Shown here: in pieces, positions 11,586-29,740 of the stretch | Layout: every line of letters begins with the position of its first letter | How positions within the stretch are numbered: the stretch's first letter is position 1 | Assembly: GCF_000250735.1 (NCBI RefSeq) | Contig: NZ_AHZV01000015.1 | Coordinates: 1 to 33,875, forward strand | Reading direction: 5' to 3' | From: Anaerophaga thermohalophila str. Valhall | GTDB taxonomy: Bacteria > Bacteroidota > Bacteroidia > Bacteroidales > Marinilabiliaceae | DNA: 33,875 nucleotides | Notes under the pieces: generated by a model | Told to the model about the DNA's origin: nothing | The model's input: only the letters and a program-made list of their open reading frames with translations | Database searches by the model: none | Translations under genes and position numbers: made by a program

Positions 11586-11587
11586 TC

Positions 11588-15672: not shown

Positions 15673-15809
15673 CTATTGACTATTGACTATTGACTAAATT
15701 ACTTATATCTAAAAATCTTACGATCTATTGAAATAAGTTGTTCGAATTTAATGGATTTTCAGGAGCAGACTCATATCATCTTATATCTTAAAATCTGACA
15801 ATCTATTGT
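15673..15809. repeat. Heptamer array and two ATCTA-type blocks
   Basis: About three units of TATTGAC (15673-15697) are followed by ATCTA-type blocks at 15704-15731 (TATATCTAAAAATCTTACG) and 15779-15809 (TTATATCTTAAAATCTGAC). Confidence 0.75.
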
Positions 15810-15828
15810 CTAAATACCGGGCATAAAA

Positions 15829-15859
15829 AAAGCCCGGCAGGGATAAATAACCGGGCTTT
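15829..15859. terminator. Bidirectional hairpin terminator
   Basis: AAAGCCCGG pairs perfectly with CCGGGCTTT; A-rich before and T-rich after, so it can work for the LytTR gene on the plus strand and for the small protein on the minus strand. Confidence 0.8.
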
Positions 15860-15866
15860 CTTATTG

Positions 15867-16022
15867 CAATACTTCGTTAAACTTTTACTGATACCTGGTT
15901 ATTAATTGTTTACACAATTAATAACGCAAACCACAACTCTCTCATAATAAAAATTTTGCGTCATTGTGTCTCTGCGTTTAGGCTTTTTTTAACGAACTAC
16001 TGCATTGATATACTCCGAAAAA
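15867..16022. repeat. Modular intergenic repeat, copy D
   Basis: Same word order as the start of copy C: ACTTCGTTAAACTT, TTACACAATTAATAACGCAAA, CACAACT, TTTTGCGTCATTGTGTCTC, then AACGAACTACTG. It ends at the stop of the small secreted protein. Confidence 0.75.
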
Positions 16023-16229
16023 CTATTCTTTCTCTTTTTCGGCTTCTTTCTTTTCAGCTTTCTTGTCGCATTCTTTTTTCTCCTTGTCACAACAAGCTTT
16101 TTTCTTCTCCTTGTCGCACTCTTTTTTCTCGGTTTTCTCAGGCTCCTGGATAGCGGCATTTGACACTACAGGGGTCGAAAGAGCAAGAGTAAACACGAAA
16201 ATCAATGATAAAGCCAATTTACGTTTCAT
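16023..16229 (-). CDS. Small secreted Lys/Glu/Cys-rich protein
   Basis: 68 residues, not assigned to a named family. The first 25 form a clear signal peptide (MKRKLALSLIFVFTLALS ... SNAA). The mature 43 residues are almost only Lys, Glu, Asp, Ala and Cys, with a repeating EKKECDKEKK-type unit and five cysteines (EC, ACC, EC pattern). It should be unstructured or helical and highly charged in the periplasm; cysteines suggest metal binding or disulfides. The hairpin at 15829-15859 can end its transcript. It lies between the LytTR regulator and the efflux operon on the opposite strand. Confidence 0.7.
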   Translation of the reverse strand: MKRKLALSLIFVFTLALSTPVVSNAAIQEPEKTEKKECDKEKKKACCDKEKKECDKKAEKKEAEKEKE

Positions 16230-16510
16230 AGTAGTATTGTTTTTAGGTTAAAAATATCCGTTTTTCCTGAATTACAAGTTTAGAATGATTCTTGATAAAT
16301 ATGTGTTATCGGGATGTTATTTCGTGTTAATGATTTGTTAACGACCTGTGTTCATCCGGTTGCTTTGGTCTGGAAAGGGTGGAAGGGTAGAACGGTAGAA
16401 AGGGTAGAACGGTAGAAGGGTTTAAGGGAGAGGCATGGAGCAGAGAGCAGAGAGCATGGGGGATGGTTAATTGGTTAGCCCGGCTCTGCTGCTTGCTTGC
16501 AAGAATTGGT
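16230..16510. repeat. Intergenic region with degenerate purine-rich arrays
   Basis: At about 16372-16428 are units of the type GGTAGAAC/GGTAGAAAG, then at 16432-16460 heptamers GCAGAGA twice. At 16480-16508 a CGGCTCTGCTGCTTGCTTGC block matches 33721-33753 in the right-end repeat. No gene seen. Confidence 0.7.
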
Positions 16511-16644
16511 TGATCACCCTTTCTGGCAGTTTTATATGGCTAAAACTTTGGTTCATAGATAAAATCAGTCCGTTCGATGAATAATTTATGTATTCGGATT
16601 CTTCAATCATAATTTGGCACGGTAATCAAAAAAAGATTTCGGAA

Positions 16645-18003
16645 ATGAAGCGATACATAAACATTCTGGTTACAATTGTTATCTGCCTGATTACTTTGCC
16701 GGTATATGGCGGCGAGGAAGGAGGGAAATTACGATGGACTCTGGAGGAGTGCATCGATTATGCGCTTGAGAACAACATAACCATCCAAAGTTCAAAAATC
16801 TCCATCGAAACCCGGGAGGTCAACCTTTTGGAAACGAAAAGCAGCAGATTGCCTTCTCTCAGTGCATCTGCCTCGGTATCGGGCAACAGTTCGCGTTCCT
16901 TTGACAACGCCGGGGGCGAATTTTCCAAAGGGGCACAGGTGGGACTTAATACCGATGTGCCTGTATACAGGGGCGGCATTATCAATAACAACATTAAAGC
17001 CGGAGAAATTGAACTTGACAAGGCCCGCCTCGATGTTGAAGAAGCTAAAAACGACATAGTATTGTCCATAACACAGGCCTGGATGAATATTCTCTTTGCC
17101 CGTGAGAATTATCTCTATTACCGCGATGTCGTGGAGACTTCGGAGGCGAATCTTGAGCGTACCAGGGCACTTTTTGAAGCAGGCACGGTTTCACGGCTGG
17201 ACCTGGCCGAACTGGAAGCACAATATGCGTCGGACCGATACTCGATGGTCAACGCAAAAAATGAGCTGGACATCCGTATTACGGAGTTGAAGACCATGCT
17301 TGACCTGCCTTATGATACGGATTTTAATCCGATTTATCCGGCCAGTGTTGAGGTTCCCGATGATGCTTTACCTGCTTTCGAAGTTATTGCGCAGGAAGTT
17401 CTCGCTCTCCGTCCCGAGATAGAAAACAGCCTGTTGTCGCAAGAAGTGGCACGGATCGATCTTGCCAATGCCAAAGCCGGATATCTGCCCACACTTAATT
17501 TCAGTGCTTCGGCTTCTTCCTCCTATTCCGATATTTACAGCGGCTCTTTTGGTTCACAGATGAACGACCGGCTTTCTCAGTATTTCGGGTTGTCTCTGAA
17601 CATTCCTATTTTCAGCAGGAACGAAAACAAAGCCAGTTTGGCCCGTTCGGAAATAAACCTCAGACAGACGGAGCTGAATGCCCGCCAGACGCGGAATGAC
17701 CTTTTGCAAACGATCGAACAGGTTTATGTGGATGTAAAAGCTCAACAGGCCCGTTATGAAGCTGCGGTCGAAAAGGCAAGATCGGCCGGTATCAGTTATG
17801 AGTACCAGCGCGAGCAGTTTGAATTGGGGATGTTAAATGCCATCGATCTTCGTCAGTCCAAAAATGCATTGCTCAATGCCAATGCTGAGTTAATCCAGGC
17901 ACGGTATTCAGCTCTGCTGTATCGTAAAATTCTTGATTTTTATCGCGGACAGCCTATTTCTGTCGGATCAGGCCATGCAGAGAATATTTCTGATGACCGG
18001 TAG
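16645..18003 (+). CDS. TolC-family outer membrane efflux protein
   Basis: 452 residues, usual length. It forms the outer-membrane exit duct of a tripartite pump. The start at 16645 is preferred over the in-frame ATG at 16588 because it begins a signal peptide (MKRYINILVTIVICLITLP, cleavage near VYG). Two OEP repeats follow, with the expected long helices: WTLEECIDYALENN near the mature N-terminus, RARLDVEEAKND-type helix 1, LERTRALFEAGTVSRLDLAE, and in the second half YEYQREQFELGMLNAIDLRQ, the matching half-repeat. First gene of the pump operon; the adaptor follows after 39 bases. Confidence 0.93.
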   Translation: MKRYINILVTIVICLITLPVYGGEEGGKLRWTLEECIDYALENNITIQSSKISIETREVNLLETKSSRLPSLSASASVSGNSSRSFDNAGGEFSKGAQVGLNTDVPVYRGGIINNNIKAGEIELDKARLDVEEAKNDIVLSITQAWMNILFARENYLYYRDVVETSEANLERTRALFEAGTVSRLDLAELEAQYASDRYSMVNAKNELDIRITELKTMLDLPYDTDFNPIYPASVEVPDDALPAFEVIAQEVLALRPEIENSLLSQEVARIDLANAKAGYLPTLNFSASASSSYSDIYSGSFGSQMNDRLSQYFGLSLNIPIFSRNENKASLARSEINLRQTELNARQTRNDLLQTIEQVYVDVKAQQARYEAAVEKARSAGISYEYQREQFELGMLNAIDLRQSKNALLNANAELIQARYSALLYRKILDFYRGQPISVGSGHAENISDDR

Positions 18004-18010
18004 CGTCTTA

Positions 18011-18039
18011 CATCTAATATCTAAATATCTAATGATCTG
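18011..18039. repeat. Heptamer repeat between pump genes
   Basis: Degenerate 7-bp units CATCTAA, TATCTAA, ATATCTAA and TGATCTG in the 39-base spacer, placed immediately before the adaptor start codon. Confidence 0.6.
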
Positions 18040-18042
18040 TTT

Positions 18043-19248
18043 ATGATGCGTAAATACATTTATTTAATTGCAGCCATCGTGGTACTTATTCTGGCTATTG
18101 TTCTTCTGACAGGAAAGAAGAGTACGGAAAACAATCTGAAACCTCGTATTCATGTTGTCGAAAAAGGAACGATTGTTAATACCGTTACTGCAACCGGCAC
18201 GGTAGAGCCCATCGACCAGGTAGAAGTGGGCACACAGGTTTCGGGCGTTATCGAACGCATTTATACCGATTATAACGAGCGTGTAAAAAAAGGGCAGCTG
18301 ATTGCCCGGATTGATGAAAGTTCGTTAAAGGCTCGTTTGCTTCAGGCAAAAGCAAGCCTGGCATCAGCTCAAAACGAACTGGATTATCAGACTAAGAACT
18401 TCCGGCGGATTAAGATGCTTTTTGAAAAGGAGATGGTCAGCGAAACGGAGTACGATGAGGCGCTTTATCGCTACAACAATGCCAAAGCGTCGGTAGAATC
18501 TCTGCAATCAGAGGTGGAACAGGCCGAAGTTAATCTCTCTTATGCCCGCATCTATTCTCCCATCGACGGAGTCGTCCTCAGCAGAAGCGTGGAAGAGGGA
18601 CAAACCGTTGCCGCCAGCTTTAACACGCCCACATTGTTCCTGATAGCCCGCGATTTAACCCGGATGCAGGTAGAAGCCGACGTGGATGAGGCCGATATTG
18701 GTCAGGTGGAAACAGGACAGAAAGTAACCTTTACGGTTGATGCATTTCCCGACACCGAGTTTACCGGAGAAGTTACCCAGGTTCGCCTCGAGCCGGTGAT
18801 CGAAAGCAATGTTGTGACCTATACGGTCATTATTGATGCACCCAATCCCGATTTTAAACTGAAACCCGGCCTGACCGCCAGTGTAACCATTATTACGAAT
18901 GAGGCGAAGGATGTTACCGTTGTACCGGCAGCAGCACTTCGCTTTTCTCCCGCGGAAAATTCGCCCGGAAGTATGGCGCTTTCTTCCGGTGGCGGAAATC
19001 ACTCATCTATGCCGGAGGCTCTTCCCGAAACCGGCGAGGACAGAGTCTGGGTATGGAAGGACGGGCATCTGCATCCCGTAATTGTGAACACGGGCATTGA
19101 AGATGGCGTTTGGTGCGAAATAAAGAGCGGCGTGCTTCCCGGTGACTCTGTGGTTACGGGAATCGATCGTCCGGATAATTTACCCGGCCGCACATTCAGA
19201 AGTCCGTTTATGCCGGGACCTCCCGGAAGAGATAAGAAAGAGGATTGA
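18043..19248 (+). CDS. MacA-like periplasmic adaptor (HlyD/RND membrane fusion family)
   Basis: 401 residues. One N-terminal membrane anchor (about 4-24). Then the barrel-sandwich/lipoyl halves (TATGTVEPIDQVEVGTQVSG and IYSPIDGVVLSRSVEEGQTV) flank a helical hairpin (about 95-165), and a beta-barrel and membrane-proximal domain close the protein (VWVWKDGHLHPVIVNTGI, SGVLPGDSVVTG). It bridges the inner-membrane ABC transporter and the TolC duct. A Ser/Gly-rich low-complexity stretch is inserted at about 300-330. Start MM at 18043/18046 is ambiguous by one codon. Confidence 0.93.
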   Translation: MMRKYIYLIAAIVVLILAIVLLTGKKSTENNLKPRIHVVEKGTIVNTVTATGTVEPIDQVEVGTQVSGVIERIYTDYNERVKKGQLIARIDESSLKARLLQAKASLASAQNELDYQTKNFRRIKMLFEKEMVSETEYDEALYRYNNAKASVESLQSEVEQAEVNLSYARIYSPIDGVVLSRSVEEGQTVAASFNTPTLFLIARDLTRMQVEADVDEADIGQVETGQKVTFTVDAFPDTEFTGEVTQVRLEPVIESNVVTYTVIIDAPNPDFKLKPGLTASVTIITNEAKDVTVVPAAALRFSPAENSPGSMALSSGGGNHSSMPEALPETGEDRVWVWKDGHLHPVIVNTGIEDGVWCEIKSGVLPGDSVVTGIDRPDNLPGRTFRSPFMPGPPGRDKKED

Positions 19249-19341
19249 AATGTACCAGACTTGTAGCAACGAATTGGCGCGTGTGAGGTACTTTTAAGTA
19301 TTGCAGGAGAGTATTGCAGGAGTCAAAGCAGTTTTTTCAAC

Positions 19342-19376
19342 CATCTAACATCTAACATCTAACATCTAACAATCTA
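19342..19376. repeat. Perfect CATCTAA heptamer array
   Basis: Four exact tandem copies of CATCTAA followed by CAATCTA, ending 7 bases before the ABC ATPase start codon. Confidence 0.9.
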
Positions 19377-19383
19377 CTTCTAT

Positions 19384-20097
19384 ATGCCACACGATATCAT
19401 CAAAATTTCCAACCTGCGAAGAGATTTTAATGTAGGTGCTGAGACTGTTCATGCTTTACGAAACGTCTCTTTCGGGGTTAAAGAGAATGAATTTTTGACC
19501 ATCATGGGAACCAGCGGTTCAGGGAAATCTACTCTTTTAAACATCCTGGGAGCGCTTGACAAGCCAACGGAGGGAGACTATTATCTCGACGGGATCAATG
19601 TGAGCAATCTTTCAAAAGATGAGCTGGCTGTAATACGAAACCGGAAGATAGGATTTGTTTTTCAGTCGTTTAACCTGTTGCCACGCACCTCGGCCCTCGA
19701 AAACGTGGAGCTTCCTCTTATGTACAACTCCGGGATATCATCACGCCGGCGCAGAGAACAGGCCATTGAAGCTTTGAGAATAGTGGGCCTGGCCGACCGG
19801 ATGAAACATGCCCCAAACCAACTTTCCGGGGGACAACAGCAACGCGTTGCCATAGCTCGTGCACTTGTTAACGACCCGGTGATGGTGCTTGCCGATGAAG
19901 CAACAGGTAACCTCGACAGCAAAACAACTGAGGATATCATGTCTCTCTTCCGGAAGCTCAACAGAGAAGGAAAAACAATCGTTTTTGTCACCCACGAACA
20001 CGATATTGCCGGATACAGCAAACGCACCATCGTGTTGAGAGACGGAGAAATTATTGATGATTATGAGAATACAGGACGCCCGGCTCAAGGCAGTTGA
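19384..20097 (+). CDS. MacB/LolD-type ABC transporter ATPase
   Basis: 237 residues. Walker A GTSGSGKST (42-50), Q-loop VFQSFNLLPR, signature LSGGQQQRVAIARAL, Walker B VMVLADEATGNLDS and the H-loop FVTHEHD are all intact. It powers the permease encoded 24 bases downstream. In E. coli MacB the ATPase is fused to the permease; here they are separate, as is common in Bacteroidota. The heptamer array at 19342 occupies its ribosome-binding region. Confidence 0.96.
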   Translation: MPHDIIKISNLRRDFNVGAETVHALRNVSFGVKENEFLTIMGTSGSGKSTLLNILGALDKPTEGDYYLDGINVSNLSKDELAVIRNRKIGFVFQSFNLLPRTSALENVELPLMYNSGISSRRRREQAIEALRIVGLADRMKHAPNQLSGGQQQRVAIARALVNDPVMVLADEATGNLDSKTTEDIMSLFRKLNREGKTIVFVTHEHDIAGYSKRTIVLRDGEIIDDYENTGRPAQGS

Positions 20098-20121
20098 ACA
20101 GAATCAACAATTTCAGTTACT

Positions 20122-21342
20122 ATGAATTTATTTAATCTTACAAAGATTGCCCTTAAGGCCATGGGCCGTAATAAAATGCGGACTTTCCTTACTATGCTGG
20201 GCATTATCATAGGTGTTACATCGGTCATTACCATGCTGGCCATCGGCCAGGGATCAAAAGAGAGCATCCAGGAACAGATATCGTCGATGGGCGCCAACAT
20301 GATCATGGTACACCCTGGCAGTGATGAGCGTGGAGGTGTGATGATGGACCCGTCGTCGATGCAAACGCTGAAACTTGAAGATGTTGAGGCCATTCAAAAA
20401 TATGCTTCACATGTTTCGGCGGTTTCGCCTATGGTCAGTACCAGCGGGCAGGCCATCGCCGGGTCCGGCAACTGGCCGACTACCATTCAGGGTGTGAGCG
20501 AAGATTTCCCGGACATCAGAAAGATGGAAGTTGCCGAGGGTGTAATGTTTACCGATTATCATATTAAACGTGCAGCCAAGGTCTGCTTGCTCGGTCAAAC
20601 AGTCGTGGATGAACTGTTTCCCTACAAAGAAACAGCCGTTGGCGAAACCATAAGGTTCAGGAAAGTACCTTTTAAGGTGATTGGTGTTTTGGCTGAAAAG
20701 GGGCAGAACACATTCGGTCAGGATCAGGATGATATTATTCTGGCGCCGTATACAACCATTCAAAAGAGAATCATGGCTGTAACGCACATCCAGTCCGTTT
20801 ATGCCAGTGCAACCAGCGAAATGGAATCGGAACAGGCCGAAGAAGAAATAACACGGGCCTTGAGGATATCCCACGAATTAGCAGAGAATGAAGAAAACGA
20901 CTTTACCGTTCGGTCGCAGCAGGAGTTGATCAGCACGTTCAGCTCCACCAGTCAGATGCTTACCATACTTTTGGGAGCTATTGCAAGTATTTCGTTGCTG
21001 GTAGGGGGGATTGGAATTATGAATATTATGTTCGTTTCGGTAACCGAACGAACGCGCGAAATAGGATTGCGCATGGCCGTTGGCGGACGCAGCCGTGATA
21101 TTCTTTCGCAGTTCCTGATAGAGGCTGTTATAGTAAGCGTGGGAGGCGGACTAATAGGTGTTTTTTTAGGTCTTGTACTCTCTTACGGATTGGGTAATAT
21201 ACTTGGATGGCCGGTTACTGTAACTGAGCAGTCCATTGTTCTCTCTTTCATGGTTTGTGCCGTTGTCGGAATATTTTTCGGATGGTATCCGGCCCGCAAG
21301 GCTTCGGGGCTTGACCCCATTGATGCACTCCGTTATGAATAA
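20122..21342 (+). CDS. MacB-type ABC transporter permease (FtsX family)
   Basis: 406 residues with the four-helix MacB/FtsX layout: one membrane segment near the N-terminus (about 20-42), a large periplasmic domain (about 43-275), then three segments (about 280-400). Signature text includes NKMRTFLTMLGIIIGVTSVI, GGIGIMNIMFVSVTERTREIG and WYPARKASGLDPIDALRYE. With the ATPase, adaptor and TolC-like genes upstream it completes a type VII ABC tripartite system. Substrates of such systems include macrolides, peptides, lipoproteins and siderophores; none is indicated here. Confidence 0.95.
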   Translation: MNLFNLTKIALKAMGRNKMRTFLTMLGIIIGVTSVITMLAIGQGSKESIQEQISSMGANMIMVHPGSDERGGVMMDPSSMQTLKLEDVEAIQKYASHVSAVSPMVSTSGQAIAGSGNWPTTIQGVSEDFPDIRKMEVAEGVMFTDYHIKRAAKVCLLGQTVVDELFPYKETAVGETIRFRKVPFKVIGVLAEKGQNTFGQDQDDIILAPYTTIQKRIMAVTHIQSVYASATSEMESEQAEEEITRALRISHELAENEENDFTVRSQQELISTFSSTSQMLTILLGAIASISLLVGGIGIMNIMFVSVTERTREIGLRMAVGGRSRDILSQFLIEAVIVSVGGGLIGVFLGLVLSYGLGNILGWPVTVTEQSIVLSFMVCAVVGIFFGWYPARKASGLDPIDALRYE

Positions 21343-21537
21343 ATCGGCCTGAAAATTGTAACAATAAGGATAAACCGCCCATATAAATGGTCAGATATTT
21401 TGTTTTTATGGAATGAGTGCGGTATAAAAAGCATATTTTTGTCAGAATAAGGACTTTTTAATTTTTTTGTAGGAGTTAACTCGTTGTTAGTGAGGATTCA
21501 AAAATTTAAAACAATACAGAGTTTGGCAACAAAGATG

Positions 21538-21858
21538 CTTTTTAGACCGGGCTCATATAATATAAAGGATATATCAGGGCTAACGCCCCTGAATTACCAT
21601 TGTTTGAATTGGCTACTACGAAGATATTAGGGCTAACGCCCCTTTTTAAAAAGGAAAATCGGAGCGTTACAGAAAAACATTGGGTAAAACAATAAATATA
21701 ATTGATAAAATAAGTGCGGCTGCAGCCCTGAAAATCTTACAAATGATTACGAATACAAAAAGGGGCGTAGAAAAAATGTATAAAATAAACCAAAGGGGCG
21801 TTAGCCCTGATATCTTCGTATTTTTCAGACTGGGCTTATGGAATTAAACCTTTTTGTT
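21538..21858. repeat. Inverted-repeat block (MITE- or REP-like)
   Basis: The motif AGGGCTAACGCCCCT occurs at 21576-21590 and 21629-21643, and inverted at 21794-21808. The latter two extend to about 28 bases (TACGAAGATATTAGGGCTAA and onward) with one difference, spaced by about 150 bases. The outer words TTTTTAGACCGGGCTCATA (21538) and TTTTTCAGACTGGGCTTATG (21821) are similar direct copies. No transposase is inside. 21343-21537 shows nothing else. Confidence 0.75.
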
Positions 21859-22659
21859 ATGGTAAGCAGGACTTTTATCTTTATGCTTCTTGCGGTGGCC
21901 GGTAGCTTTTCATCATTTGCCGTTAATGGTTCTTCCTCTGACAATCCCAAAACTGTATATGCTCCCGGGGAAGAGCTTAAGTACTCCCTGAAATACGGCT
22001 TTATCAAAGGAGGAGAAGCCAGGCTGACAGTAAATGACACCATGCTCTCAGGTCAGCAACTGAACCATGTTATCGCCAGCGGGAAAACCGTTGGTCTGGC
22101 CGACGCCATTTATAAAGTGCGCGATCGTTACGAAAGTTTTATTGATCCCCGGACAGACCTTCCTGTCAAGGCAATTCGAAGCATCCGTGAAGGCAGCTAC
22201 AGGTATTATAATGAGGTGTTGTTTGAACATCACCATCAGGACTCGGCTAAAGTGAAAAGTCAGAAATCGGGTGAGCACTGGGTACCTGAGAATATCCACG
22301 ATATCCTTTCGGCTTTTTATTTCGCACGCAAGCATAAGTTTAACGACGACCTGCAGGAAGGCGAAATGATTGAGATCATGACTTATTTTGCCGATGAACT
22401 CTTTCCACTTCGGATACGTTACCGGGGTACGGAAGTAATTGATACTCCCCTAGGCAAACTGGAATGTTATCTCTTTTCGCCTGTTACAGAGGTAGGCCGT
22501 GCATTTAAGACGGAAGACGACATGCAGGTGTGGATTTCGCGCGACAAAAACCGTGTTCCCGTGCGGATCAGATTTCAGCTCAGAGTGGGGGCTTTTACAT
22601 GTAATCTTGAGCAATTCCGGGGCCTTAAGAATCCTTTTTCAAGTTTTGTTGTTCCGTGA
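21859..22659 (+). CDS. DUF3108 domain-containing exported protein
   Basis: 266 residues from the ATG at 21859, which begins a proper signal peptide (MVSRTFIFMLLAVAGSFSSFA). An in-frame ATG at 21838 would add MELNLFV, partly encoded by the upstream repeat, and is less likely. The mature protein has the DUF3108 pattern: LKYSLKYGFIKGGEARLTV, DRYESFIDPRTDLPVKAIRS, EGEMIEIMTYFADELFPL and VWISRDKNRVPVRIRFQLRVG. The domain is beta-rich and periplasmic; its function is unknown. Confidence 0.85.
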   Translation: MVSRTFIFMLLAVAGSFSSFAVNGSSSDNPKTVYAPGEELKYSLKYGFIKGGEARLTVNDTMLSGQQLNHVIASGKTVGLADAIYKVRDRYESFIDPRTDLPVKAIRSIREGSYRYYNEVLFEHHHQDSAKVKSQKSGEHWVPENIHDILSAFYFARKHKFNDDLQEGEMIEIMTYFADELFPLRIRYRGTEVIDTPLGKLECYLFSPVTEVGRAFKTEDDMQVWISRDKNRVPVRIRFQLRVGAFTCNLEQFRGLKNPFSSFVVP

Positions 22660-22998: not shown

Positions 22999-23064
22999 TG
23001 TGTCTGTTCAAAAAGTGCCGGTGGCAAGCGTAACTCAGCAAATGGTACTTTAAGGACAGACACT
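22999..23064 (+). repeat. Palindromic element, copy 2 (internal deletion)
   Basis: Keeps both ends (TGTGTCTGTTCAAAAAGTGC and TACTTTAAGGACAGACACT) but lacks the inner stem present in copy 1; the join reads GGCAAGCGTAACTCAGC. About 66 bases, ending 17 bases before efp. Confidence 0.85.
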
Positions 23065-23081
23065 CTTTAAGAATTAAAGAA

Positions 23082-23651
23082 ATGGCAACAACCGCAGATT
23101 TTAGAAACGGAATGTGTATCGAGTTTAACGGGCAACTGTTTTTTATTGTGCAGTTTCAGCATGTTAAACCCGGTAAGGGCCCTGCCTTTGTAAGAACTAA
23201 GTTGAAAAACGTAGCCACCGGGAAAGTGCTTGATAATACTTTTCCTTCGGGGCATAAAGTGAATGAAGCCAGGGTAGAAAGAAGGCCGCATCAGTTTCTC
23301 TATAAAGACGATCTTGGCTATCATTTCATGAACAGTGAAACATTCGAACAGATCAATTTAGCAGAAGAACTTGTTGATAATCCTCATTTGCTGAAAGAGG
23401 GTCTGGAGGTAGAGGTATTGTATCATGCCGACACCGAAACTCCTATTTTGGTCAATCTTCCGCAATTTATTACTTACGAAGTGACTTATACCGAGCCCGG
23501 TGTGCGTGGTGATACTTCATCGACTAACTCTTTGAAACCCGCCACTGTCGATACCGGCGCTACCATTATGGTACCGCTTTTTATCAATACCGGCGATAAT
23601 ATTAAAGTCGATACGCGTGATCAATCGTATGTGGAACGTGTGAAAGATTAA
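23082..23651 (+). CDS. efp: Translation elongation factor P
   Basis: 189 residues, full length. EF-P rescues ribosomes stalled on polyproline. The N-terminal domain carries the tip loop [10 protein letters not shown] with Lys32 at the position that is modified in many bacteria, flanked by Pro, so a lysine-type modification is possible. Two OB domains follow (about 66-128 and 129-189), and the conserved C-terminal part has [18 protein letters not shown] and [20 protein letters not shown]. Its leader holds element copy 2 and a candidate promoter at 22886; a strong terminator follows at 23742. Confidence 0.97.
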
Positions 23652-23741
23652 TTGTTTGCCTGGCGTGATCCGTCGGTTCGGGCCGGTCTTTCTCCCGGCA
23701 GTCACAAAAACGACAACAAGAAATTAACTTTTAGGGGTTTA

Positions 23742-23781
23742 ACCTGTCAAAGGAATATAATATCTCTTTGACAGGTTTTTT
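23742..23781 (+). terminator. Rho-independent terminator after efp
   Basis: ACCTGTCAAAG pairs perfectly with CTTTGACAGGT and is followed by TTTTT. Confidence 0.9.
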
Positions 23782-23859
23782 GTTACGGGAAGCATAATTT
23801 TTCGCATAAAAAAATTAAATTTCGTACATTTATCGGAAATGTAAGACACACAGCATCCC

Positions 23860-25092
23860 ATGATCACGCAGGTAAAAAAGAAACGACTACGTCTGTACAA
23901 AGACCGGCTCAATATCTTACTGGATATTGCGCAGACCATTAATCAGGATCATACGGTTGATGATTTGCTTGCCGAGTTTGAGATTTTGCTGAGGGAGGAG
24001 TTGGAAGTAGGAAAGATTCTTGTTTTTACCAACTCCGACGGAGAATGGAAAAATCTGCTGATTTCGGGGGTGTCGGCCGAAGAGGTTGAAAAGATTGATG
24101 TAGAGCGCGATCTTTTACAATACAAATCCATAGAAAATATAACACTTGCACCGCCTGTACCGCTTCAGGGATTTGATGCCGTAATTCCGCTGTTTCACCG
24201 GTACCGGGCCATTGGTTACGTTCTGATTGGCGACGTTGAGGAAGAGCAACAGGGCATCAGTCCTACCATTAAACACCTGAAACTGATTCAGATCATCTCC
24301 AATCTCATCATTGTATTCATTGAGAATAAGAGGATGCAGGAGACTATCCTCGAACAGGAGGCTATTAAGAAGGAGATGGAGGTGGCCTCAAAGATTCAAA
24401 CTCAGCTTATTCCCAGCCCCGAAGACCTGCCACGTCATAAAAAGCTGTCGCTGCAAGCGTTCTATCATCCGCACTGGGGTGTTGGAGGCGATTATTACGA
24501 TATTATACCCCTGTCTCGTAATTCCATAGGCTTCTGTGTGGCCGATGTTTCCGGCAAGGGAATTGCCGCCGCCCTTTTAATGTCCAATTTCCAGGCTGTC
24601 ATTCGCACGTTGTTTACCGCTGGCATTAATCTGAAAAAGCTGATTCACCAGCTCAATCAGCGGGTAAACAACAGCGCCAACAATGAGAAATTTATTACCA
24701 TGTTCATTGGGAAATATAATTTGCGCAGCCGCAGACTCACCTATGTTAATGCCGGACACCTTCCTCCGCTGCTTTTCGATCGCCGGAAATCGCATCTCGA
24801 TTCTCTGGACAGTGGTTGTATCGGCCTTGGAATGCTCGATGTCATTCCATCGGTGGAAGTTGGCAAAATTACTGTTCCCAAAAATGCCAAATTAATGGCG
24901 TTTACCGACGGGCTTATAGAGTTGGAACGCGATAATGAGGTACATTCAGGCCTTATGAACATCGAAAAGATTATTACCAACCGGAAAAGCATCGAAGAGA
25001 ATATGGAGGAGGCAAAACGCCTGGTGGCCCGTCATATCGAATCAGGGGCGGTTTTTGATGATATCTCGTTAATTGGTATGGAGTTTAAGTAG
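23860..25092 (+). CDS. RsbU-like PP2C (SpoIIE-type) serine/threonine phosphatase
   Basis: 410 residues. The N-terminal part (about 15-155) looks like a GAF-type sensory domain (ILLDIAQTINQDHTVDDLL ... IGYVLIGDVEEE). A helical linker (about 155-190) leads to the phosphatase domain with the metal-binding motifs VASKIQTQLIPSPEDLP, GGDYYDIIPL, ADVSGKGIAAALLMSNFQA, YVNAGHLPPLL, MAFTDGLIE and DDISLIGM at the end. Such enzymes act on anti-anti-sigma proteins in partner switching; no STAS or anti-sigma gene is nearby. The stop codon (25090-25092) overlaps the first bases of element copy 3. Confidence 0.93.
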   Translation: MITQVKKKRLRLYKDRLNILLDIAQTINQDHTVDDLLAEFEILLREELEVGKILVFTNSDGEWKNLLISGVSAEEVEKIDVERDLLQYKSIENITLAPPVPLQGFDAVIPLFHRYRAIGYVLIGDVEEEQQGISPTIKHLKLIQIISNLIIVFIENKRMQETILEQEAIKKEMEVASKIQTQLIPSPEDLPRHKKLSLQAFYHPHWGVGGDYYDIIPLSRNSIGFCVADVSGKGIAAALLMSNFQAVIRTLFTAGINLKKLIHQLNQRVNNSANNEKFITMFIGKYNLRSRRLTYVNAGHLPPLLFDRRKSHLDSLDSGCIGLGMLDVIPSVEVGKITVPKNAKLMAFTDGLIELERDNEVHSGLMNIEKIITNRKSIEENMEEAKRLVARHIESGAVFDDISLIGMEFK

Positions 25093-25215
25093 TGTCTGTC
25101 CATAAAGTATCATTTACTGTGTTATGCTCGTCCGAAAATTACTCATTTACGATGAGTAAACTCTGTATTTTCGGACTTCGCAAGCCTTGTAAATGACACT
25201 TTCTGAACAGACACA
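25091..25215 (-). repeat. Palindromic element, copy 3 (full, opposite orientation)
   Basis: Same ends as copies 1 and 4 but inner stem GTCCGAAAA... pairing with ...TTTTCGGAC in place of GCCGCCAAAA/TTTTGGCGGC, so both arms differ together. The outer stem also changes on both arms (TTTAC/GTAAA where copy 4 has TTGC/GCAA). Confidence 0.85.
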
Positions 25216-25239
25216 TGATATGTAGGAATTTTTTCCCAC

Positions 25240-25275
25240 TTTATAGACCGGCACCAAATAGTGCCCGTCTATAAA
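25240..25275. repeat. 36-bp near-perfect palindrome TTTATAGACCGGCAC...
   Basis: TTTATAGACCGGCAC pairs with GTGCCCGTCTATAAA (one mismatch) around CAAATA. It looks like two inverted TCTATAAA flank modules meeting head to head. It lies 25 bases beyond the stop of the next minus-strand gene and may also act as a terminator. Confidence 0.7.
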
Positions 25276-25300
25276 CTTTCAAAAAATCTCACAATATGTT

Positions 25301-25825
25301 TTAATCCAGTTCTTCCCAGATTTCCGAAAATTTATCCTTATAGGTGCGCACTATTCTCAGGTTGTTTTCGCCAACATCTTTTTTTAGTTGTTCCTTGTCG
25401 TGTCCCAACTCTTTATTTAGTATCCTGATGTTAATTCTTTTCTGGTCATCAGTAACATACGGGTTTTCATTGATTTGTTCTTCCGAGGTCATCAATATTT
25501 GCCTGCGTTCGGCGATCAAATCGTCGTAGTTAAGACAAAACCAGGTTTTACAAAATGTTTCCAGGGCATCCAGGAGCAGGGCGTCATATCCGTATTGATC
25601 GAGAAGCACTTCACCTTTTGCATGCAATGCAGCATCGCGGGGCCAGATATAATAAGCCTGCGACACGGTAATGCCGGCCTGCCGAAGCTGAGGTACCATC
25701 CGGGGTAAAGTTCCGATGATGTGAAGTATCTCTTTGTCGTTCAGGTTGTCTCCATCTGAATTTTGGGAGCAGACAGACATCGATAATAAAAAAGCAGCCA
25801 GAAACAGAGATAATTTAGCAAACAT
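25301..25825 (-). CDS. Exported protein of unknown function
   Basis: 174 residues, family not recognised. Residues 1-20 are a signal peptide (MFAKLSLFLAAFLLSMSVCS); the Cys before the cleavage region lacks a good lipobox. The mature part is predicted helical and charged, with AYYIWPRDAALHAKG, FCKTWFCLNYDDLIAERR and a Lys/Glu-rich end (GHDKEQLKKDVGENN). It lies 51 bases from the DUF4252 gene on the same strand and may share its transcript. Confidence 0.65.
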   Translation of the reverse strand: MFAKLSLFLAAFLLSMSVCSQNSDGDNLNDKEILHIIGTLPRMVPQLRQAGITVSQAYYIWPRDAALHAKGEVLLDQYGYDALLLDALETFCKTWFCLNYDDLIAERRQILMTSEEQINENPYVTDDQKRINIRILNKELGHDKEQLKKDVGENNLRIVRTYKDKFSEIWEELD

Positions 25826-25876
25826 GGCACTGAAAATTATGGGTCAAAGCCCGGTTTTCAACGACAAGTTAATAAT

Positions 25877-26350
25877 TTATCTCATATCATCGGCCTCAGC
25901 AACCATTTTATCAATGTCTTCCACCCTGAAATCGCCATAAAACGAGAGCATAAAAAGAGCATCATCGTCGTTGTTGACGACATGACATTCTTTAATCTTT
26001 TTCCCCGACCGGACCACAAAAACTTTGCTCTCTTCATCCATGTCATCGTCTTCAATTTCTTTGAAAGGACGACCATTAAGTGTTTTTACTATTGCTCCGA
26101 CAGAAGAGGCTGCCTTATCTTTTTCGCAAATCATCAGTTTTACTTTTTCCAGCGGTCCGGTAACCTGTTTTGATTCTTCGTCATCCACCACCATGTCAAC
26201 CAGATCAATGACATCTTTGGAAAGGGATACGATGGTTACGCCCGATGCCCCGTCAAGTTGGGCATACAGCTTTTCTGATGTGCTTAGTTGGGCTTTTGCA
26301 ACCGGGAATGCCAACAGGCAAACCCAGGTTAAAAAGAGAATTTGTTTCAT
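25877..26350 (-). CDS. DUF4252 domain-containing exported protein
   Basis: 157 residues. Signal peptide 1-20 (ending PVAKAQ). The remainder matches the small Bacteroidota DUF4252 family: ASGVTIVSLSKDVIDLVDM, then an acidic linker (DDEESKQ), then VKLMICEKDKAASSVGAI, ESKVFVVRSGKKIKE and LFMLSFYGDFRVEDIDKM. These are periplasmic proteins of unknown function, sometimes near extracytoplasmic stress regulators; the PspC/PadR block lies upstream on the same strand. Confidence 0.85.
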   Translation of the reverse strand: MKQILFLTWVCLLAFPVAKAQLSTSEKLYAQLDGASGVTIVSLSKDVIDLVDMVVDDEESKQVTGPLEKVKLMICEKDKAASSVGAIVKTLNGRPFKEIEDDDMDEESKVFVVRSGKKIKECHVVNNDDDALFMLSFYGDFRVEDIDKMVAEADDMR

Positions 26351-26357
26351 TAATTAG

Positions 26358-26440
26358 AGATTAAATAGATTAATAGATCATTAGATTTAAGATCATTTAT
26401 TACTTCTGCCTTCTGCCTGTCCAACTTCTGCCTGTCTGAT
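26358..26440. repeat. ATTAGAT words and CTGCCTT heptamers
   Basis: AT-rich words related to the ATCTA family (AATAGATTAATAGATCATTA) are followed by CTTCTGCCTTCTGCCTGTCC and another CTTCTGCCTGTC. The phrase TTTATTACTTCTGCCTTCTG recurs at 29699-29720. Confidence 0.75.
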
Positions 26441-26478
26441 ACTTTCACCTGAAAACTAAACGATTTGGTTATTCTTAT

Positions 26479-27879
26479 TCAATTTACATCAATCAAATAT
26501 TTAAACTCATCGGCAACTTTTACTACTTTGCCTTCAGGAATTTGAATGGTGACATCTATTTCCTGACCACGCATGACACCAGGTTTCTGAATGCTGAAAT
26601 AGCGGTCGAGTAATAAAAGAGAGTCGTTCTGCATGTAGAAATATTCTATCATTTCTGCATTTTCGAGTGCTTCGTCGGACGATTGTCCCCGCGATTTTTT
26701 CCGCACAGAGATTTCGAAGTTTGCGCCATCACGATTCACTTCAATATCAGGAGTTCCAACAATTACCGGTTGATCGTTCTGACGCTTGATGGAGATGCCA
26801 TCGTTGCTGAATATGTGAGTTCCCTCTCCGAGTTTTAGAGAGGCTTCGGTAGGTTCAATATAGATGGTATCTGATTCGGGAACATCGAGCAGTTTGCGTT
26901 CTTCAATTTCCATTTCGTTAGCATAGCCGGAGGCTACTTGTACGCCGGTGTAGGTGATAAGACCGATGCCAACCAGCCACAGGATGAGCGATATAACCAG
27001 GAATGCCGGCCCGCCTTTTTTGAAACGGAAGATCAGGTGCATGCCCAGATAGAATAAAACCAGCAAAGGAATACCGGCAGCCAGCAATATTCCGATGACA
27101 GCGGCCAGTCTTTGTCCGGGCATGAGAAAGAAACTTTCAAGTCCCGGCGCCCATACGCCCTCGTGGGTCAAACTTTCCAGGATGACATCAGTTAAGGAAA
27201 AGGCCATAATAATCCCGCTCAGCGAAAGGAAGGAAATGATGATAAGGAAAATGCCGGCAACAACAGCGATAACACGTAAAACACCTTTCATTGCATCGCC
27301 GTTTCCCGGACGAGACATCTGGCGTCTTCGCCAGGAATCGCTGCCGGGTGCTCCGCCCATCATCATAATGCGTTGTTGCATGGTCACCGCTTTCGGAATG
27401 GCGATCCAAAGGATGAGGTAGACCAGAACAGAAGTACCGTACAAGAATGTAGCCAGGATGAAAAGTAACCTGAACAAGACGGGGTCGGTACCAAAATAGT
27501 TTCCCAGGCCGCCACAAACACCTCCCAGCACCCGGTTGTCGGGATCACGAAACAATTGTTTTTTCACGTAAGGTTCCTCCCATGTTTTATTTTCGGTGGC
27601 TTTGTCGGGATCGTCGGGCGTTTCATAATCGCCGGGATCACCCAGGGTTTTAATGATCTCATTGACATCTTCGAGGGTAACCGATGAGGAAGCATCGGGA
27701 TGAACGCCCCGAAAGAGCTCTGCAATACGCAGGTTAATGTCCTCAAGCGTTTCTTTGGCTTCATCGGTATCGCCAAGCTTCGCTTTTACTTCCTCCAGGT
27801 AGCTGTTTAGCCGGTCATAGGCATCTTCATCTATGCTGAAAGCATGACCTGCAAGATTGATATGGATGGTTTTCTTCAT
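26479..27879 (-). CDS. PspC-domain protein with extended C-terminal region
   Basis: 466 residues. The N-terminal 90 residues (MKKTIHINLAGHAFSIDEDA, EIIKTLGDPGDYE) form the small domain shared with the neighbouring PspC protein. The PspC helix pair is at about 110-170 (LFRDPDNRVLGGVCGGLGNY, YLILWIAIPKAV). Three further membrane segments lie at about 200-320, and an exported beta-rich end (about 325-466) resembles the adhesin-like repeats seen in many long Bacteroidota PspC proteins. It ends at FKYLIDVN, somewhat earlier than many relatives, so a short C-terminal loss is possible. PspC proteins respond to inner-membrane stress. Confidence 0.9.
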   Translation of the reverse strand: MKKTIHINLAGHAFSIDEDAYDRLNSYLEEVKAKLGDTDEAKETLEDINLRIAELFRGVHPDASSSVTLEDVNEIIKTLGDPGDYETPDDPDKATENKTWEEPYVKKQLFRDPDNRVLGGVCGGLGNYFGTDPVLFRLLFILATFLYGTSVLVYLILWIAIPKAVTMQQRIMMMGGAPGSDSWRRRQMSRPGNGDAMKGVLRVIAVVAGIFLIIISFLSLSGIIMAFSLTDVILESLTHEGVWAPGLESFFLMPGQRLAAVIGILLAAGIPLLVLFYLGMHLIFRFKKGGPAFLVISLILWLVGIGLITYTGVQVASGYANEMEIEERKLLDVPESDTIYIEPTEASLKLGEGTHIFSNDGISIKRQNDQPVIVGTPDIEVNRDGANFEISVRKKSRGQSSDEALENAEMIEYFYMQNDSLLLLDRYFSIQKPGVMRGQEIDVTIQIPEGKVVKVADEFKYLIDVN

Positions 27880-27948
27880 AATTTTAGTTGTTAAATATTT
27901 TTCAGATTCTTTTCGGAGCCGGCATTCAAACTAAAAAACCGGAATCCC

Positions 27949-27972
27949 CCAGCTCATCAGCTTACCAGCTCA
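27949..27972. repeat. Octamer array CCAGCTCA/TCAGCTTA/CCAGCTCA
   Basis: Three 8-bp units; the last three bases form the stop codon (minus strand TGA) of the next PspC gene, so the repeat overlaps its 3' end. Confidence 0.6.
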
Positions 27973-28929
27973 CATAAACGTATGCATCATGTGGGGCCAA
28001 GCAAACACACCCAACATCTTAAACAGGAATGCGGCCAGTAATACCACGGCAATCAGAATAAGGAATCCTTTCATTGCAGAACGAAAAGCCAGACCCAGTA
28101 TTAAAAGAATAAGGACAAGGGGGAATATTCCCGGAAAGCCAAAGTGGCTGAACGGGAAATCGAAATGAAATGCCGGATTCCACCCCAATTCAAAAGGGAT
28201 GTTGACAAGATTTGCCATAATAATGACTCCCACGATTACAGCCGTAATTACCAGGGCTGTCCGGTCGCGTTTATGAAACCGTCCCAGGTAATCTTCACCT
28301 TTTCTGTAGGCGCGTGATTGCTGGAATTTTCGTTTTACCTCGTTGTATTCGTTGCGGATGTTTTTTTCTATGTTCGAAATGTTGACATCATGCCCTTGCA
28401 TTTCGAGCCGCTGGGCAGCTGTTAAGGCAGGGGGAATAGCTATCCACAGGATGATGTAGATAGGAATAATTGCCCCAAAGCTCAGGAAGGGTAATACTGC
28501 AAACAAAACCCTGACCACTACCCGGTCGATGTCGAAATATGCAGCAATTCCAGAGCAAACGCCGCCAAAAACGCGGTCTTCCACATCGCGATACAAACGA
28601 CGTCGTGGTGGCACTGTTGAAAAGGTATTTCCCTGCTCCTGCCCGCTGCTTTCATTGTCAGCCGGCTCTTCTGAGAAATCTTCTGGTTGTCCCATCGTAT
28701 TGACAATTTCCTCAACCAGGTCTATGGTGATAACACCTGTTGTAGGATTGATTTTATCTTCGAACAGCTCTCTTATGCGCGCTTCTATGTCATCGTAAAT
28801 TTCTTGTCCACCCTCTTTTTCGCGCGACCATATCTCAAGTTTCTTAAGATATTCTTCCAGTCGTGCAAATGCATCTTCATCGATATAGAAAGAACGGCCT
28901 GCAATATTAATGGTCACTACTTTCTTCAT
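27970..28929 (-). CDS. PspC-domain membrane stress protein
   Basis: 319 residues. The N-terminal domain (1-90, MKKVVTINIAGRSFYIDEDA, TMGQPEDFSEE) parallels the one in the PspC protein downstream. The PspC domain follows at about 110-170 (RRLYRDVEDRVFGGVCSGIA, YIILWIAIPPALT), with three more membrane segments after residue 225 and no large exported end. The start codon lies inside the PadR gene (23-base overlap), so translation is coupled to the regulator. The last residues (WPHMMHTFM) end in a repeat, which could mean that the original end is lost. Confidence 0.92.
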   Translation of the reverse strand: MKKVVTINIAGRSFYIDEDAFARLEEYLKKLEIWSREKEGGQEIYDDIEARIRELFEDKINPTTGVITIDLVEEIVNTMGQPEDFSEEPADNESSGQEQGNTFSTVPPRRRLYRDVEDRVFGGVCSGIAAYFDIDRVVVRVLFAVLPFLSFGAIIPIYIILWIAIPPALTAAQRLEMQGHDVNISNIEKNIRNEYNEVKRKFQQSRAYRKGEDYLGRFHKRDRTALVITAVIVGVIIMANLVNIPFELGWNPAFHFDFPFSHFGFPGIFPLVLILLILGLAFRSAMKGFLILIAVVLLAAFLFKMLGVFAWPHMMHTFM

Positions 28930-29263
28930 GGTTTTGATTTTTGGAGTTAATGAATTGAACAGAATTTACTAACTCTGTCCAGGACAAGTCAAGTTCCTGA
29001 AGAAACTCGCGTCCCCGGTCGGTCAGTTCATAATATTTGCGTGGCGGCCCTTGTGTCGATTCCTCCCAACGGTACGACAAGAGCCCGGCATTTTTAAGCC
29101 TTGTAAGAAGGGGGTAAAGTGTTCCCTCAACCACGATGATGCGCGCTTCCTTCATCTCATTAATGATGTCCGAAGCATAAGCATCTCCTCTTGACAGAAC
29201 GGAAAGGATGCAATATTCCAGCACTCCCTTTCGCATCTGAGCTTTGGCATTTTCTATCTTCAT
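28907..29263 (-). CDS. PadR-family transcriptional regulator
   Basis: 118 residues, the small PadR-s2 type, a winged-helix DNA-binding dimer. Seen are MRKGVLEYCILSVLSRGDAY, VVEGTLYPLLTRLKNAGLLS (recognition helix and wing) and GPPRKYYELTDRGREFL. The combination PadR-PspC-PspC is a common Bacteroidota stress block, where PadR usually represses its own operon. Overlaps the PspC gene by 23 bases and follows the small membrane protein by 12. A candidate operator is described at 29787-29811. Confidence 0.95.
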   Translation of the reverse strand: MKIENAKAQMRKGVLEYCILSVLSRGDAYASDIINEMKEARIIVVEGTLYPLLTRLKNAGLLSYRWEESTQGPPRKYYELTDRGREFLQELDLSWTELVNSVQFINSKNQNHEESSDH

Positions 29264-29275
29264 ATTTTTTTGTTT

Positions 29276-29512
29276 TTAAAACGGCAGACCAATCATGAAG
29301 GATGATGCTGCATGGTTTGATCTTTCTTCTCCCGAATCGGCTTTGGTACAATGTTCAACATCTTTCTTTAGTCTCTCAGCGGCCACTGAAGTTTCATCTG
29401 TAACCCGGGGAACGGGTTGTTGTCTCCCCGTTAATAATAAGGCCAATATGAACAGAGTGCTAAAAGCGACAATTGACCATGTTTTTCGGGTGATGTTACG
29501 ATTTTTCTTCAT
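29276..29512 (-). CDS. Small single-pass membrane protein of unknown function
   Basis: 78 residues. A basic N-terminus (MKKNRNITRKTW) precedes one membrane segment (about 13-29, SIVAFSTLFILALLL). About 49 residues would face outward, with the weakly charged ETSVAAERLKKDVEHCTK. It is the first gene of the minus-strand unit, 12 bases before padR, with GGAA just upstream of its ATG. No family recognised; it could be the sensor or partner of the PadR/PspC block. Confidence 0.6.
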   Translation of the reverse strand: MKKNRNITRKTWSIVAFSTLFILALLLTGRQQPVPRVTDETSVAAERLKKDVEHCTKADSGEERSNHAASSFMIGLPF

Positions 29513-29698
29513 TTCCTTTTATTCAAATCAAAAGCGCAAATAACGCTCCATCAATTATTCGCTATGCAGAATTCAACGTTTGCTTATCAGGCAGATTTTC
29601 AAAACAAACTGAAAGATAAATTCTTGCAATACCCGATCAAAACCGGGACAGGCTGTTGAGCCGAATCGCTCAGTTTGGTGAAAATTCTTTTCTACATA

Positions 29699-29740
29699 AT
29701 TTATTACTTCTGCCTTCTGCCTGTCGATTAACATCTAATA
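29699..29740. repeat. CTGCCTT heptamer phrase in the padR-typA gap
   Basis: TTTATTACTTCTGCCTTCTG followed by CCTGTCGATTAACATCTAAT, a near copy of the phrase at 26396-26415. The rest of 29513-29954 holds the promoter and operator candidates listed separately and nothing else recognisable. Confidence 0.7.

What the first reader, a model, noticed from the sequence alone, without database searches (positions are those of the whole stretch)
15673..29740. Several unrelated sequences share a 7-bp tandem period
CATCTAA (19342-19376), TATTGAC (15673-15697), CTGCCTT (26405-26437, 29706-29724), CAACAAG/CAACCAG (1468-1517) and GCAGAGA (16438-16458) are all heptamer arrays in spacers, with different units but the same period. 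A common period with differing units suggests one generating mechanism, for example a polymerase or recombination process that copies in 7-base steps.
Basis: partly seen in the sequence, partly recalled or inferred. Interest (0 to 1): 0.58.

Follow-up and report, generated by a model that had tools for sequence, protein, structure and literature searches.

The report
Seven-base repeats in fast-changing spacers
The gaps between genes in this bacterium are full of short repeated words, most often seven letters long; this is a known but unexplained habit of bacterial DNA, and here a close relative lacks most of the same words at the same places, so they seem to come, spread and vanish quickly.

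Summary
In detail: the named arrays exist, and period 7 is far above chance (window spacers 8 vs 0.10 expected; 779 kb of the genome 69 vs 0.4). The host is Marinilabilia-like (Bacteroidales). A 7-bp excess over different units recurs in other Bacteroidales and in Nostocales plasmids. But it is published, with the same 7-nt polymerase idea (Mrazek 2007, seen only as cited in PMC4679880), and seven is not exclusive: in the sister species 6- and 8-mers outnumber 7-mers, and the CATCTAA site is 8-mer-like there. The two CTGCCTT arrays are copies of one dispersed element. New here: units amplified almost only in this species; exact tandem AACCAGC has 89 places vs 1 in the sister, TTGACTA 42 vs 1, often without shared flanks. 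Best reading: spacer simple-sequence repeats born and resized in slippage-like steps of 7 +/- 1 bp, some carried by dispersed modules. How a unit spreads without flanks is open.

The parts
1441..1472 (+). degenerate 7/8-mer array, CAATTAC-CAATTAAC-CAATTAG
   Evidence: TRF; sequence
1468..1521 (+). AACCAGC/AACAAGC heptamer array, 7.7 copies; same unit family with other variant units at the orthologous site in G001
   Evidence: TRF; alignment; orthology; 89 exact 16-base places genome-wide vs 1 in G001
15673..15696 (+). CTATTGA (TTGACTA) heptamer array, 3.4 copies, inside a dispersed module whose copies at C333:1427 (5.4 copies) and C296:47168 (2.6 copies) share both flanks
   Evidence: the surrounding stretch of spacer has no counterpart in the collinear G001 spacer; the automatic orthology test set this array aside
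16438..16456 (+). GAGCAGA heptamer array, 2.7 copies; unit absent in the G001 interval
19342..19376 (+). CATCTAA heptamer array, 4.9 copies; G001 has degenerate, mostly 8-bp units (CATCTAAT-like) at the same place
26403..26438 (+). CTTCTGC array, units 7 and then 15 bp apart, part of a dispersed element; lies in a block (about 25830-26474) absent from G001
29707..29722 (+). CTTCTGC array, 2.3 copies, same dispersed element; G001 has one unit here
33826..33841 (+). TCCTGTA, 2.3 copies
1243..1425 (+). neighbouring non-heptamer arrays: hexamers GAGGCT/TGAGGC (1243-1317, 1374-1425) and a 9-mer ACACAGATG-type array (1325-1350)

Best explanation
These are intergenic simple-sequence repeats. Shown: heptamer arrays lie mostly in spacers, are far above chance, are accompanied by 6-, 8- and 9-mer arrays, are often not kept between two sister species at comparable sites, and in a few cases differ there by one 7- or 8-bp unit. 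Some are carried by dispersed spacer modules found at several loci with the same flanks. Inferred: the arrays are born and resized by local slippage or small tandem duplication during replication or repair, with a favoured step near 7 (+/-1) nt; variant units then sweep along an array; modules, and perhaps recombination between arrays, carry units to other spacers, giving each species its own set of units. No coding or regulatory role is needed.
For: Excess: 69 vs 0.4 expected in G000 spacers; 23 vs 1.40 in 79 other Bacteroidales loci and 26 vs 0.47 in 9 Nostocales plasmid stretches, with further peaks at 14 and 21. Mostly in spacers: 69 spacer against 9 coding arrays of period 7. Step size: 1 unit vs 2 units at 29707; indels of 5 to 30 bp that are exact tandem copies in aligned spacers: one of 6, two of 7, one of 8, none of other lengths; module copies with 3.4 and 5.4 TTGACTA units, 14 bp apart. 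Turnover at one site: GTTGGAT x3 in G000 where G001 has GTTAGAT(T); TTAGTTG x4 in G001 where G000 has TTAGAT-type units. Fast change: of 24 G000 arrays with a G001 interval, 2 set aside, 3 keep the unit in tandem, 4 keep a single unit, 15 lack it. Module spread: 12 of 25 CTTCTGC loci and 3 of 6 TTGACTA loci share both flanks with another locus. Unlike arrays cluster: 48 pairs within 200 bp against a random mean of 12.8 and a maximum of 25 in 300 draws.
Against: Only four tandem indels of 5 bp or more were seen, and all spacer indels together show no peak at 7 (6: 40, 7: 31, 8: 24). Seen from G001, arrays look better kept: of 14, 3 set aside, 6 keep the unit in tandem in G000 (some rows are one site counted twice), 3 a single unit, 2 lack it. 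Local slippage alone does not explain one unit at many loci with unlike flanks: 0 of 5 AACCAGC loci and 2 of 8 AATTGAT loci share both flanks with another, and AACCAGC is 89 vs 1 between sisters. The random flank control was uneven: 0, 0, 6, 0, 0 of 25 sharing both flanks in five draws, and 2 of 6 in one of five small draws. Outside the genus the pattern is patchy: in 80 kb each of five family members the period-7 counts are 11, 2, 2, 1 and 0, and the 21.8-kb M. rubra stretch has none. Why 7 is favoured is not explained. Draft assemblies can misstate array lengths.
Confidence: 0.6

Rival explanations
1. Unit-specific spreading: a chosen heptamer is written into many unrelated spacers, by ectopic template switching from existing arrays or by an RNA-templated enzyme, so that each genome fills with its own few units.
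For: AACCAGC 89 places on 25 contigs vs 1 in the sister, TTGACTA 42 places on 13 contigs vs 1 (places are overlapping 16-base matches, so loci are fewer); in the family AACCAGC is in 3 of 71 genomes and TTGACTA in 5 of 71, with one or two places in each but G000; another member, G069, has 102 places of a different unit (the reversed control, a TAACTGA rotation) and G112 has 52 of CTTCTGC; the same unit at loci with unlike flanks.
Against: Part of the spread is by modules with shared flanks. The exact pattern undercounts the sister: G001 C200:104113-104153 holds tandem AACCAGC units without the exact 16 bases. Of three reverse-transcriptase hits two are group II intron maturases, not the tandem-repeat-making kind; the third has an in-frame stop and was not classified. 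Loss in the sister rather than gain here is not excluded: no outgroup spacers were aligned.
Confidence: 0.2
2. One reading: one polymerase or recombination process that copies in fixed 7-base steps.
For: Period-7 excess over many units in three samples, with peaks at 14 and 21; the same idea is in print (Mrazek 2007 as cited in PMC4679880).
Against: Sister genome: 8-mers 57, 7-mers 41, 6-mers 56, 9-mers 31; 8-mer-like sequence at the CATCTAA site in the sister; clusters of like units 9, 8 and 7 for periods 7, 8 and 9 in G000. In the 79 Bacteroidales loci other periods also exceed expectation (8: 8 vs 1.20, 9: 10 vs 0.87, 18: 9 vs 0.73, 22: 9 vs 1.00).
Confidence: 0.12
3. The arrays are binding sites (DNA or RNA) kept by selection, as proposed for TAACTGA upstream of start codons in Beggiatoaceae and for heptamer or octamer sites in Geobacter metallireducens.
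For: Precedent proposals (PMC4679880 sections; PMC2700814 passages). In G001 period-7 density is highest in convergent spacers (0.53 per kb against 0.13 and 0.18), a pattern not seen in G000.
Against: 15 of 22 usable G000 arrays lack the unit in the sister; no preference for divergent spacers in either genome; many different units; no Rfam match in the window. Distance to start codons was not measured.
Confidence: 0.06
4. Chance, or low-complexity composition.
For: Some arrays are short (2.3 copies).
Against: 8 vs 0.10 in the window, Poisson 2e-13; the reversed units have 0 places in G000 and G001 for both AACCAGC and TTGACTA.
Confidence: 0.01

Closest known systems
Long simple sequence repeats of prokaryotes, heptanucleotide class (Mrazek, Guo and Shah 2007; not read: seen as cited in PMC4679880 and in the reference list of PMC4060949)
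   Same: Heptamers commonest, slippage as proposed cause, 7 nt proposed as the stretch interacting with the polymerase
   Different: In the sister species 7 is not the commonest period; the units tested here are nearly confined to one species; many sit in dispersed modules
TAACTGA direct repeats of Beggiatoaceae, Cyanobacteria and Bacteroidetes (MacGregor 2015, PMC4679880; abstract and sections 3, 10, 24 read)
   Same: Tandem heptamer, mostly intergenic, one unit amplified in some genomes and absent in a relative, indels mostly in 7-nt increments between two Cyanothece strains
   Different: Other units; position relative to start codons was not measured here
Heptanucleotide repeats (STRR) of filamentous cyanobacteria (Mazel 1990 recalled; Calothrix heptanucleotides mentioned in the introduction of PMC4692102; the term STRR in one passage of PMC2670836)
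   Same: Tandem heptamers in cyanobacteria; our 450 kb of Nostocales plasmids show the same period-7 excess
   Different: Different phylum; unit sets overlap no more than by chance (2 of 38 families, permutation mean 0.95, p 0.24)
Heptamer and octamer multicopy sequences of Geobacter metallireducens (PMC2700814, passages)
   Same: Short tandem 7- and 8-mers at many places in one genome
   Different: There four or five units in alignable elements, proposed as regulatory elements or regulator sites; here copy number and unit vary

Membership tests
Prokaryotic heptanucleotide simple-sequence repeats | Tandem runs longer than expected by chance in that genome | tested here: met
   69 vs 0.4; window 8 vs 0.10
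Prokaryotic heptanucleotide simple-sequence repeats | Period 7 the commonest class among units of 5-11 bp | tested here: met
   Met in G000 (69 of period 7, next 8-mers 25); not met in the sister G001 (41 vs 57 eight-mers and 56 six-mers)
Prokaryotic heptanucleotide simple-sequence repeats | Copy number varies by whole units between related genomes | tested here: inconclusive
   Seen at a few sites (29707; 7-bp indels at L092:15975 and L183:13371); more often the unit is absent from the sister interval
Cyanobacterial STRR | Heptanucleotide arrays of filamentous cyanobacteria | tested here: not met
   Host is Bacteroidales by TypA (best match 90% to Marinilabilia rubra); unit sets not shared beyond chance
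Phase-variation contingency loci | Repeat in a promoter or reading frame whose length switches a gene | not testable with these tools
   No reads or expression data; period-7 density is not raised in divergent spacers
DRT10-type templated repeat synthesis (PMC12632851, abstract and outline read) | A reverse transcriptase of that kind with a template RNA | tested here: inconclusive
   PF00078 gives three hits in the genome; two are group II intron maturases with a GIIM domain; the third has an in-frame stop and was not classified; no DRT10 model was run
TAACTGA repeats | Unit TAACTGA in tandem | tested here: not met
   The reversed control is a TAACTGA rotation: 0 places in G000 and G001, but places in 11 of 71 family genomes, 102 of them in G069

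The most novel reading that the evidence does not exclude
Each such genome runs a unit-specific copying process that writes one or a few heptamers into many unrelated spacers within the lifetime of a species, like a telomerase-style or template-switching generator whose template changes from species to species; the shared 7-bp period is the signature of that process.
Probability: 0.12. Interest if true: 0.8.

Novelty: new member of a known kind. Interest (0 to 1): 0.4.

Why it matters
Why bacterial simple repeats favour seven bases has been discussed since at least 2007 (as cited in PMC4679880). A pair of sister species with alignable genes but very unequal heptamer sets (89:1 and 42:1 exact places for two units) lets birth, resizing and spread of arrays be compared over a short time, and separates a mutational step-size question from a spreading question.

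Tried and rejected
Cyanobacterial host: my first guess, from memory of STRR; rejected by the TypA search.

A vocabulary of heptamers shared across phyla: first suggested by a Nostoc plasmid found with a CTTCTGC-bearing query and a second plasmid of the same strain, so biased. With L190 and eight further stretches, chosen without looking at repeats (450 kb), 2 of 38 Marinilabilia heptamer families were shared, permutation mean 0.95, p 0.24; the reversed-unit control gave 1; of 36 octamer families none was shared. Rejected at this power. Two mosaic queries against plasmids gave 18 weak matches, the best E-value listed being 2, one of them in Nostoc, and none.

Phylum-wide CTTCTGC: 4 of 198 genomes including G000, reversed control 2 of 198: rare and patchy. 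Family: 13 of 71, control 3 of 71.

Reversed control for TTGACTA: it hit more family genomes (11 of 71) than the pattern itself (5 of 71), because read on the other strand it is a rotation of TAACTGA; so it is no neutral control outside the genus. The AACCAGC control hit 0 of 71.

Reverse-transcriptase generator; the PADLOC hits are broad RT matches and were not taken as assignments.

Arrays as recombination junctions: among the AACCAGC, TTGACTA and AATTGAT loci, 4 of 19 share one flank only, no more than random spacer positions; not pursued.

A 46-base repeat phrase of G001 gave no plasmid match. Papers on Marinilabilia repeats: nine listed, none on the subject by title. The 2007 PNAS paper is not held.

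Bias to know: 7 of the first 20 G000 stretches were picked because they hold CTTCTGC; most contigs, and most G001 contigs, because one search listed element matches on them; the five genomes because they match CTTCTGC. A subset of 36 G000 stretches (326,995 bases), 33 taken by contig number and 3 continuing such contigs, gives 19 seven-mers against 6 eight-mers. The CTTCTGC 25:9 species contrast is therefore biased; the whole-genome counts are not. One search's printed output was cut; its tally is.
Full report
What was claimed.

Is it there. Yes. TRF and direct reading place all of them within a few bases of the stated coordinates, plus two more. In the window's 7,612 spacer bases there are 8 period-7 arrays against 0.10 expected from an order-3 Markov model; hexamers are next with 4, period 12 gives 3. 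An octamer (CTTTGCGT) and a 9-mer array are present as well.

Where it comes from. The TypA protein at 29955-31757 is 90% identical to that of Marinilabilia rubra and 81% or less to the other 79 loci kept. The genome held, G000, has 4.54 Mb in 371 contigs. One other genome of the genus, G001, is held. The window is collinear with G001 contig C200 from about 45 to 31750 apart from indels, with blocks at roughly 85-97% identity; in all 253,793 alignment columns were compared between the two samples.

Is 7 special genome-wide. In 778,883 bases of G000 (17%, partly chosen for repeats, see Tried and rejected), spacers hold 69 arrays of period 7 (match run of at least 9), against 14, 25, 11, 1 and 5 for periods 6, 8, 9, 10 and 11; 0.4 were expected for period 7, and 0.5 to 2.1 for those others. 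Periods 14, 15, 21 and 22 are also raised (28, 36, 28 and 35), 14 and 21 as multiples of 7 and 15 and 22 as the spacing of mixed 7- and 8-bp units. The less biased subset of 326,995 bases gives 19 against 6 eight-mers. Coding sequence shows no such peak (9 of period 7, 12 of 8, 18 of 6). In 79 Bacteroidales loci there are 23 (1.40 expected), in 16 of 79 loci, with 20 at period 14 and 11 at 21; several other periods are raised there too (8: 8, 9: 10, 18: 9, 22: 9, each with about 1 expected). In nine 50-kb Nostocales plasmid stretches there are 26 (0.47 expected), in 8 of 9, with 9 at 14 and 13 at 21. The stated refuter is thus not met. Against exclusivity: in 1,185,667 bases of G001 the counts are 56, 41, 57 and 31 for periods 6, 7, 8 and 9. 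When units within one mismatch are grouped, G000 has 9, 8 and 7 groups at periods 7, 8 and 9, and G001 9, 9 and 7; in the 79 loci the groups are 14, 8 and 9 and in the plasmids 11, 1 and 4. So within this genus the surplus of 7 owes much to amplification of a few units; outside it, separate units do favour 7. Among five family members with 80 kb each the period-7 counts are 11 (G036, against 4 eight-mers), 2, 2, 1 and 0, and the 21.8 kb of M. rubra has none: the trait is patchy.

Independence of the arrays in the window. The two CTGCCTT arrays belong to one dispersed element: the spacer at 26395-26465 matches dozens of other places in G000 and G001, among them 29696-29725, with the frame TTTAT-ACTTCTGCCTTCTGCCTG-TC. 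CTTCTGCCT cores are spaced 7 (28 times), 15 (22), 14 (2) and 21 (1) bp apart in G000, so the element mixes 7- and 8-bp units. The TATTGAC array sits in another module whose copies on C333 and C296 share both flanks; the window and C333 copies differ by two units, 3.4 against 5.4.

What the sister shows. Of 24 G000 heptamer arrays with anchors in G001, 2 were set aside for an unreliable anchor or a long interval; of the other 22, 3 keep the unit in tandem, 4 a single unit, 8 have no tandem and 7 another tandem in the interval. In the reverse direction 14 G001 arrays: 3 set aside, 6 same unit, 3 single, 1 none, 1 other; some of these are one site counted twice. Window cases: at 29707 G001 has one CTTCTGC unit where G000 has two; at 19342 G000 has CATCTAA repeats and G001 CATCTAAT-like, mostly 8-bp units; the block 25830-26474, a DUF4252 gene plus the 26403 array, is missing in G001; the spacer around 15673 is missing at the collinear place; at 1468 both have the AACCAGC family with different variant units. 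Elsewhere GTTGGAT in G000 stands where G001 has GTTAGAT(T), and TTAGTTG in G001 where G000 has TTAGAT-type units, as expected if variant units sweep along an array. Exact tandem indels of 5 to 30 bp in aligned spacers number four: one of 6, two of 7, one of 8. That fits a 7 +/- 1 step but is a small sample, and all spacer indels together decline smoothly with length.

Species-private units. Whole-genome exact counts: TTGACTATTGACTATT 42 places on 13 contigs in G000, 1 in G001; AACCAGCAACCAGCAA 89 on 25 contigs, 1 in G001; reversed patterns 0 in both genomes. Places are overlapping matches, so a long array counts several times; and the exact pattern misses the AACCAGC-type array of G001 C200:104113-104153. 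Among 71 family genomes AACCAGC occurs in 3 and TTGACTA in 5, with one or two places outside G000. The reversed control of the TTGACTA pattern, which on the other strand is a rotation of TAACTGA, occurs in 11 of 71, with 102 places in G069. CTTCTGC has 52 places in a distant Bacteroidota genome, G112. So single heptamers are amplified in single genomes, as MacGregor described for TAACTGA. Flanks: 12 of 25 CTTCTGC loci, 3 of 6 TTGACTA, 2 of 8 AATTGAT and 0 of 5 AACCAGC share both flanks with another locus of the unit; random spacer positions gave 0, 0, 6, 0 and 0 of 25, and small draws 0 to 2 of 6. Module copying explains part of the spread, not all.

Other features. Unlike arrays lie near each other more than at random: 48 pairs within 200 bp against a mean of 12.8 (maximum 25) in G000, and 45 against 20.2 (maximum 36) in G001; shared modules contribute to this. 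Period-7 density is 0.30, 0.48 and 0.53 per kb in convergent, divergent and tandem spacers of G000, and 0.53, 0.13 and 0.18 in G001: no class stands out in both. No Rfam family reaches its threshold in the window. Reverse transcriptases: three Pfam hits, two of them group II intron maturases.

Mechanism. The best-supported account is ordinary: local slippage or small tandem duplication with a favoured step near seven, turnover of units, and carriage by dispersed modules that come and go. The step size and the turnover are seen in a few cases; the agent (polymerase) and the reason for seven are inferred. The unit-by-species contrast without shared flanks is not explained by this alone and is the part worth pursuing.

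Prior knowledge. Its own subject, TAACTGA, occurs in Beggiatoaceae, Cyanobacteria and five Bacteroidetes. PMC4692102 (abstract and introduction read) treats G-rich heptamers in Xanthomonas and Nostoc. PMC2700814 (passages) describes 7- and 8-mer families in Geobacter. PMC12632851 (abstract and outline) describes an RNA-templated maker of tandem-repeat DNA, the model for the boldest rival. A search of the held library for Bacteroidetes with heptamer, tandem repeats and intergenic returned only PMC4679880; a search for Marinilabilia and repeats listed nine papers, none on the subject by title.

Noticed in passing
window 3953-7401: About 3.4 kb with a HpcH/HpaI-type lyase gene (4599-5519) and a Y1 transposase-like gene (6685-7248) is missing from the collinear place in G001, apart from a short repeat-like match at 3987-4065; both ends carry a similar stretch of about 85 bp with CTTTGCGT repeats, of which G001 has one, as after recombination between direct repeats or an insertion.
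   Followed up: partly
window 25830-26474: A DUF4252 gene with its upstream spacer and CTTCTGC array is absent from G001, whose flanking matches meet within two bases.
   Followed up: partly
window about 25092-25215: Copy of the dispersed repeat with the highest 14-mer count in the G000 sample, with inverted ends GTGTCTGTCC... and ...GAACAGACAC, resembling a MITE.
   Followed up: no
window 7401-15500: 97.3% identical to G001 while the other window blocks of that call are about 85-92%, suggesting recent exchange between the species.
   Followed up: no
G069 (family member): 102 places of the reversed control pattern, a rotation of TAACTGA, the heptamer described from Beggiatoaceae; ten other family genomes have 1-9 places.
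   Followed up: no
G112 (same phylum): 52 places of CTTCTGCCTTCTGCCTTC in one genome while 194 of 198 sampled have none.
   Followed up: no
G000 and G001 spacers: Spacers are mosaics of many dispersed modules (about seven told apart by eye) that can differ wholly between the species at the same place, for instance C266:40869.
   Followed up: partly
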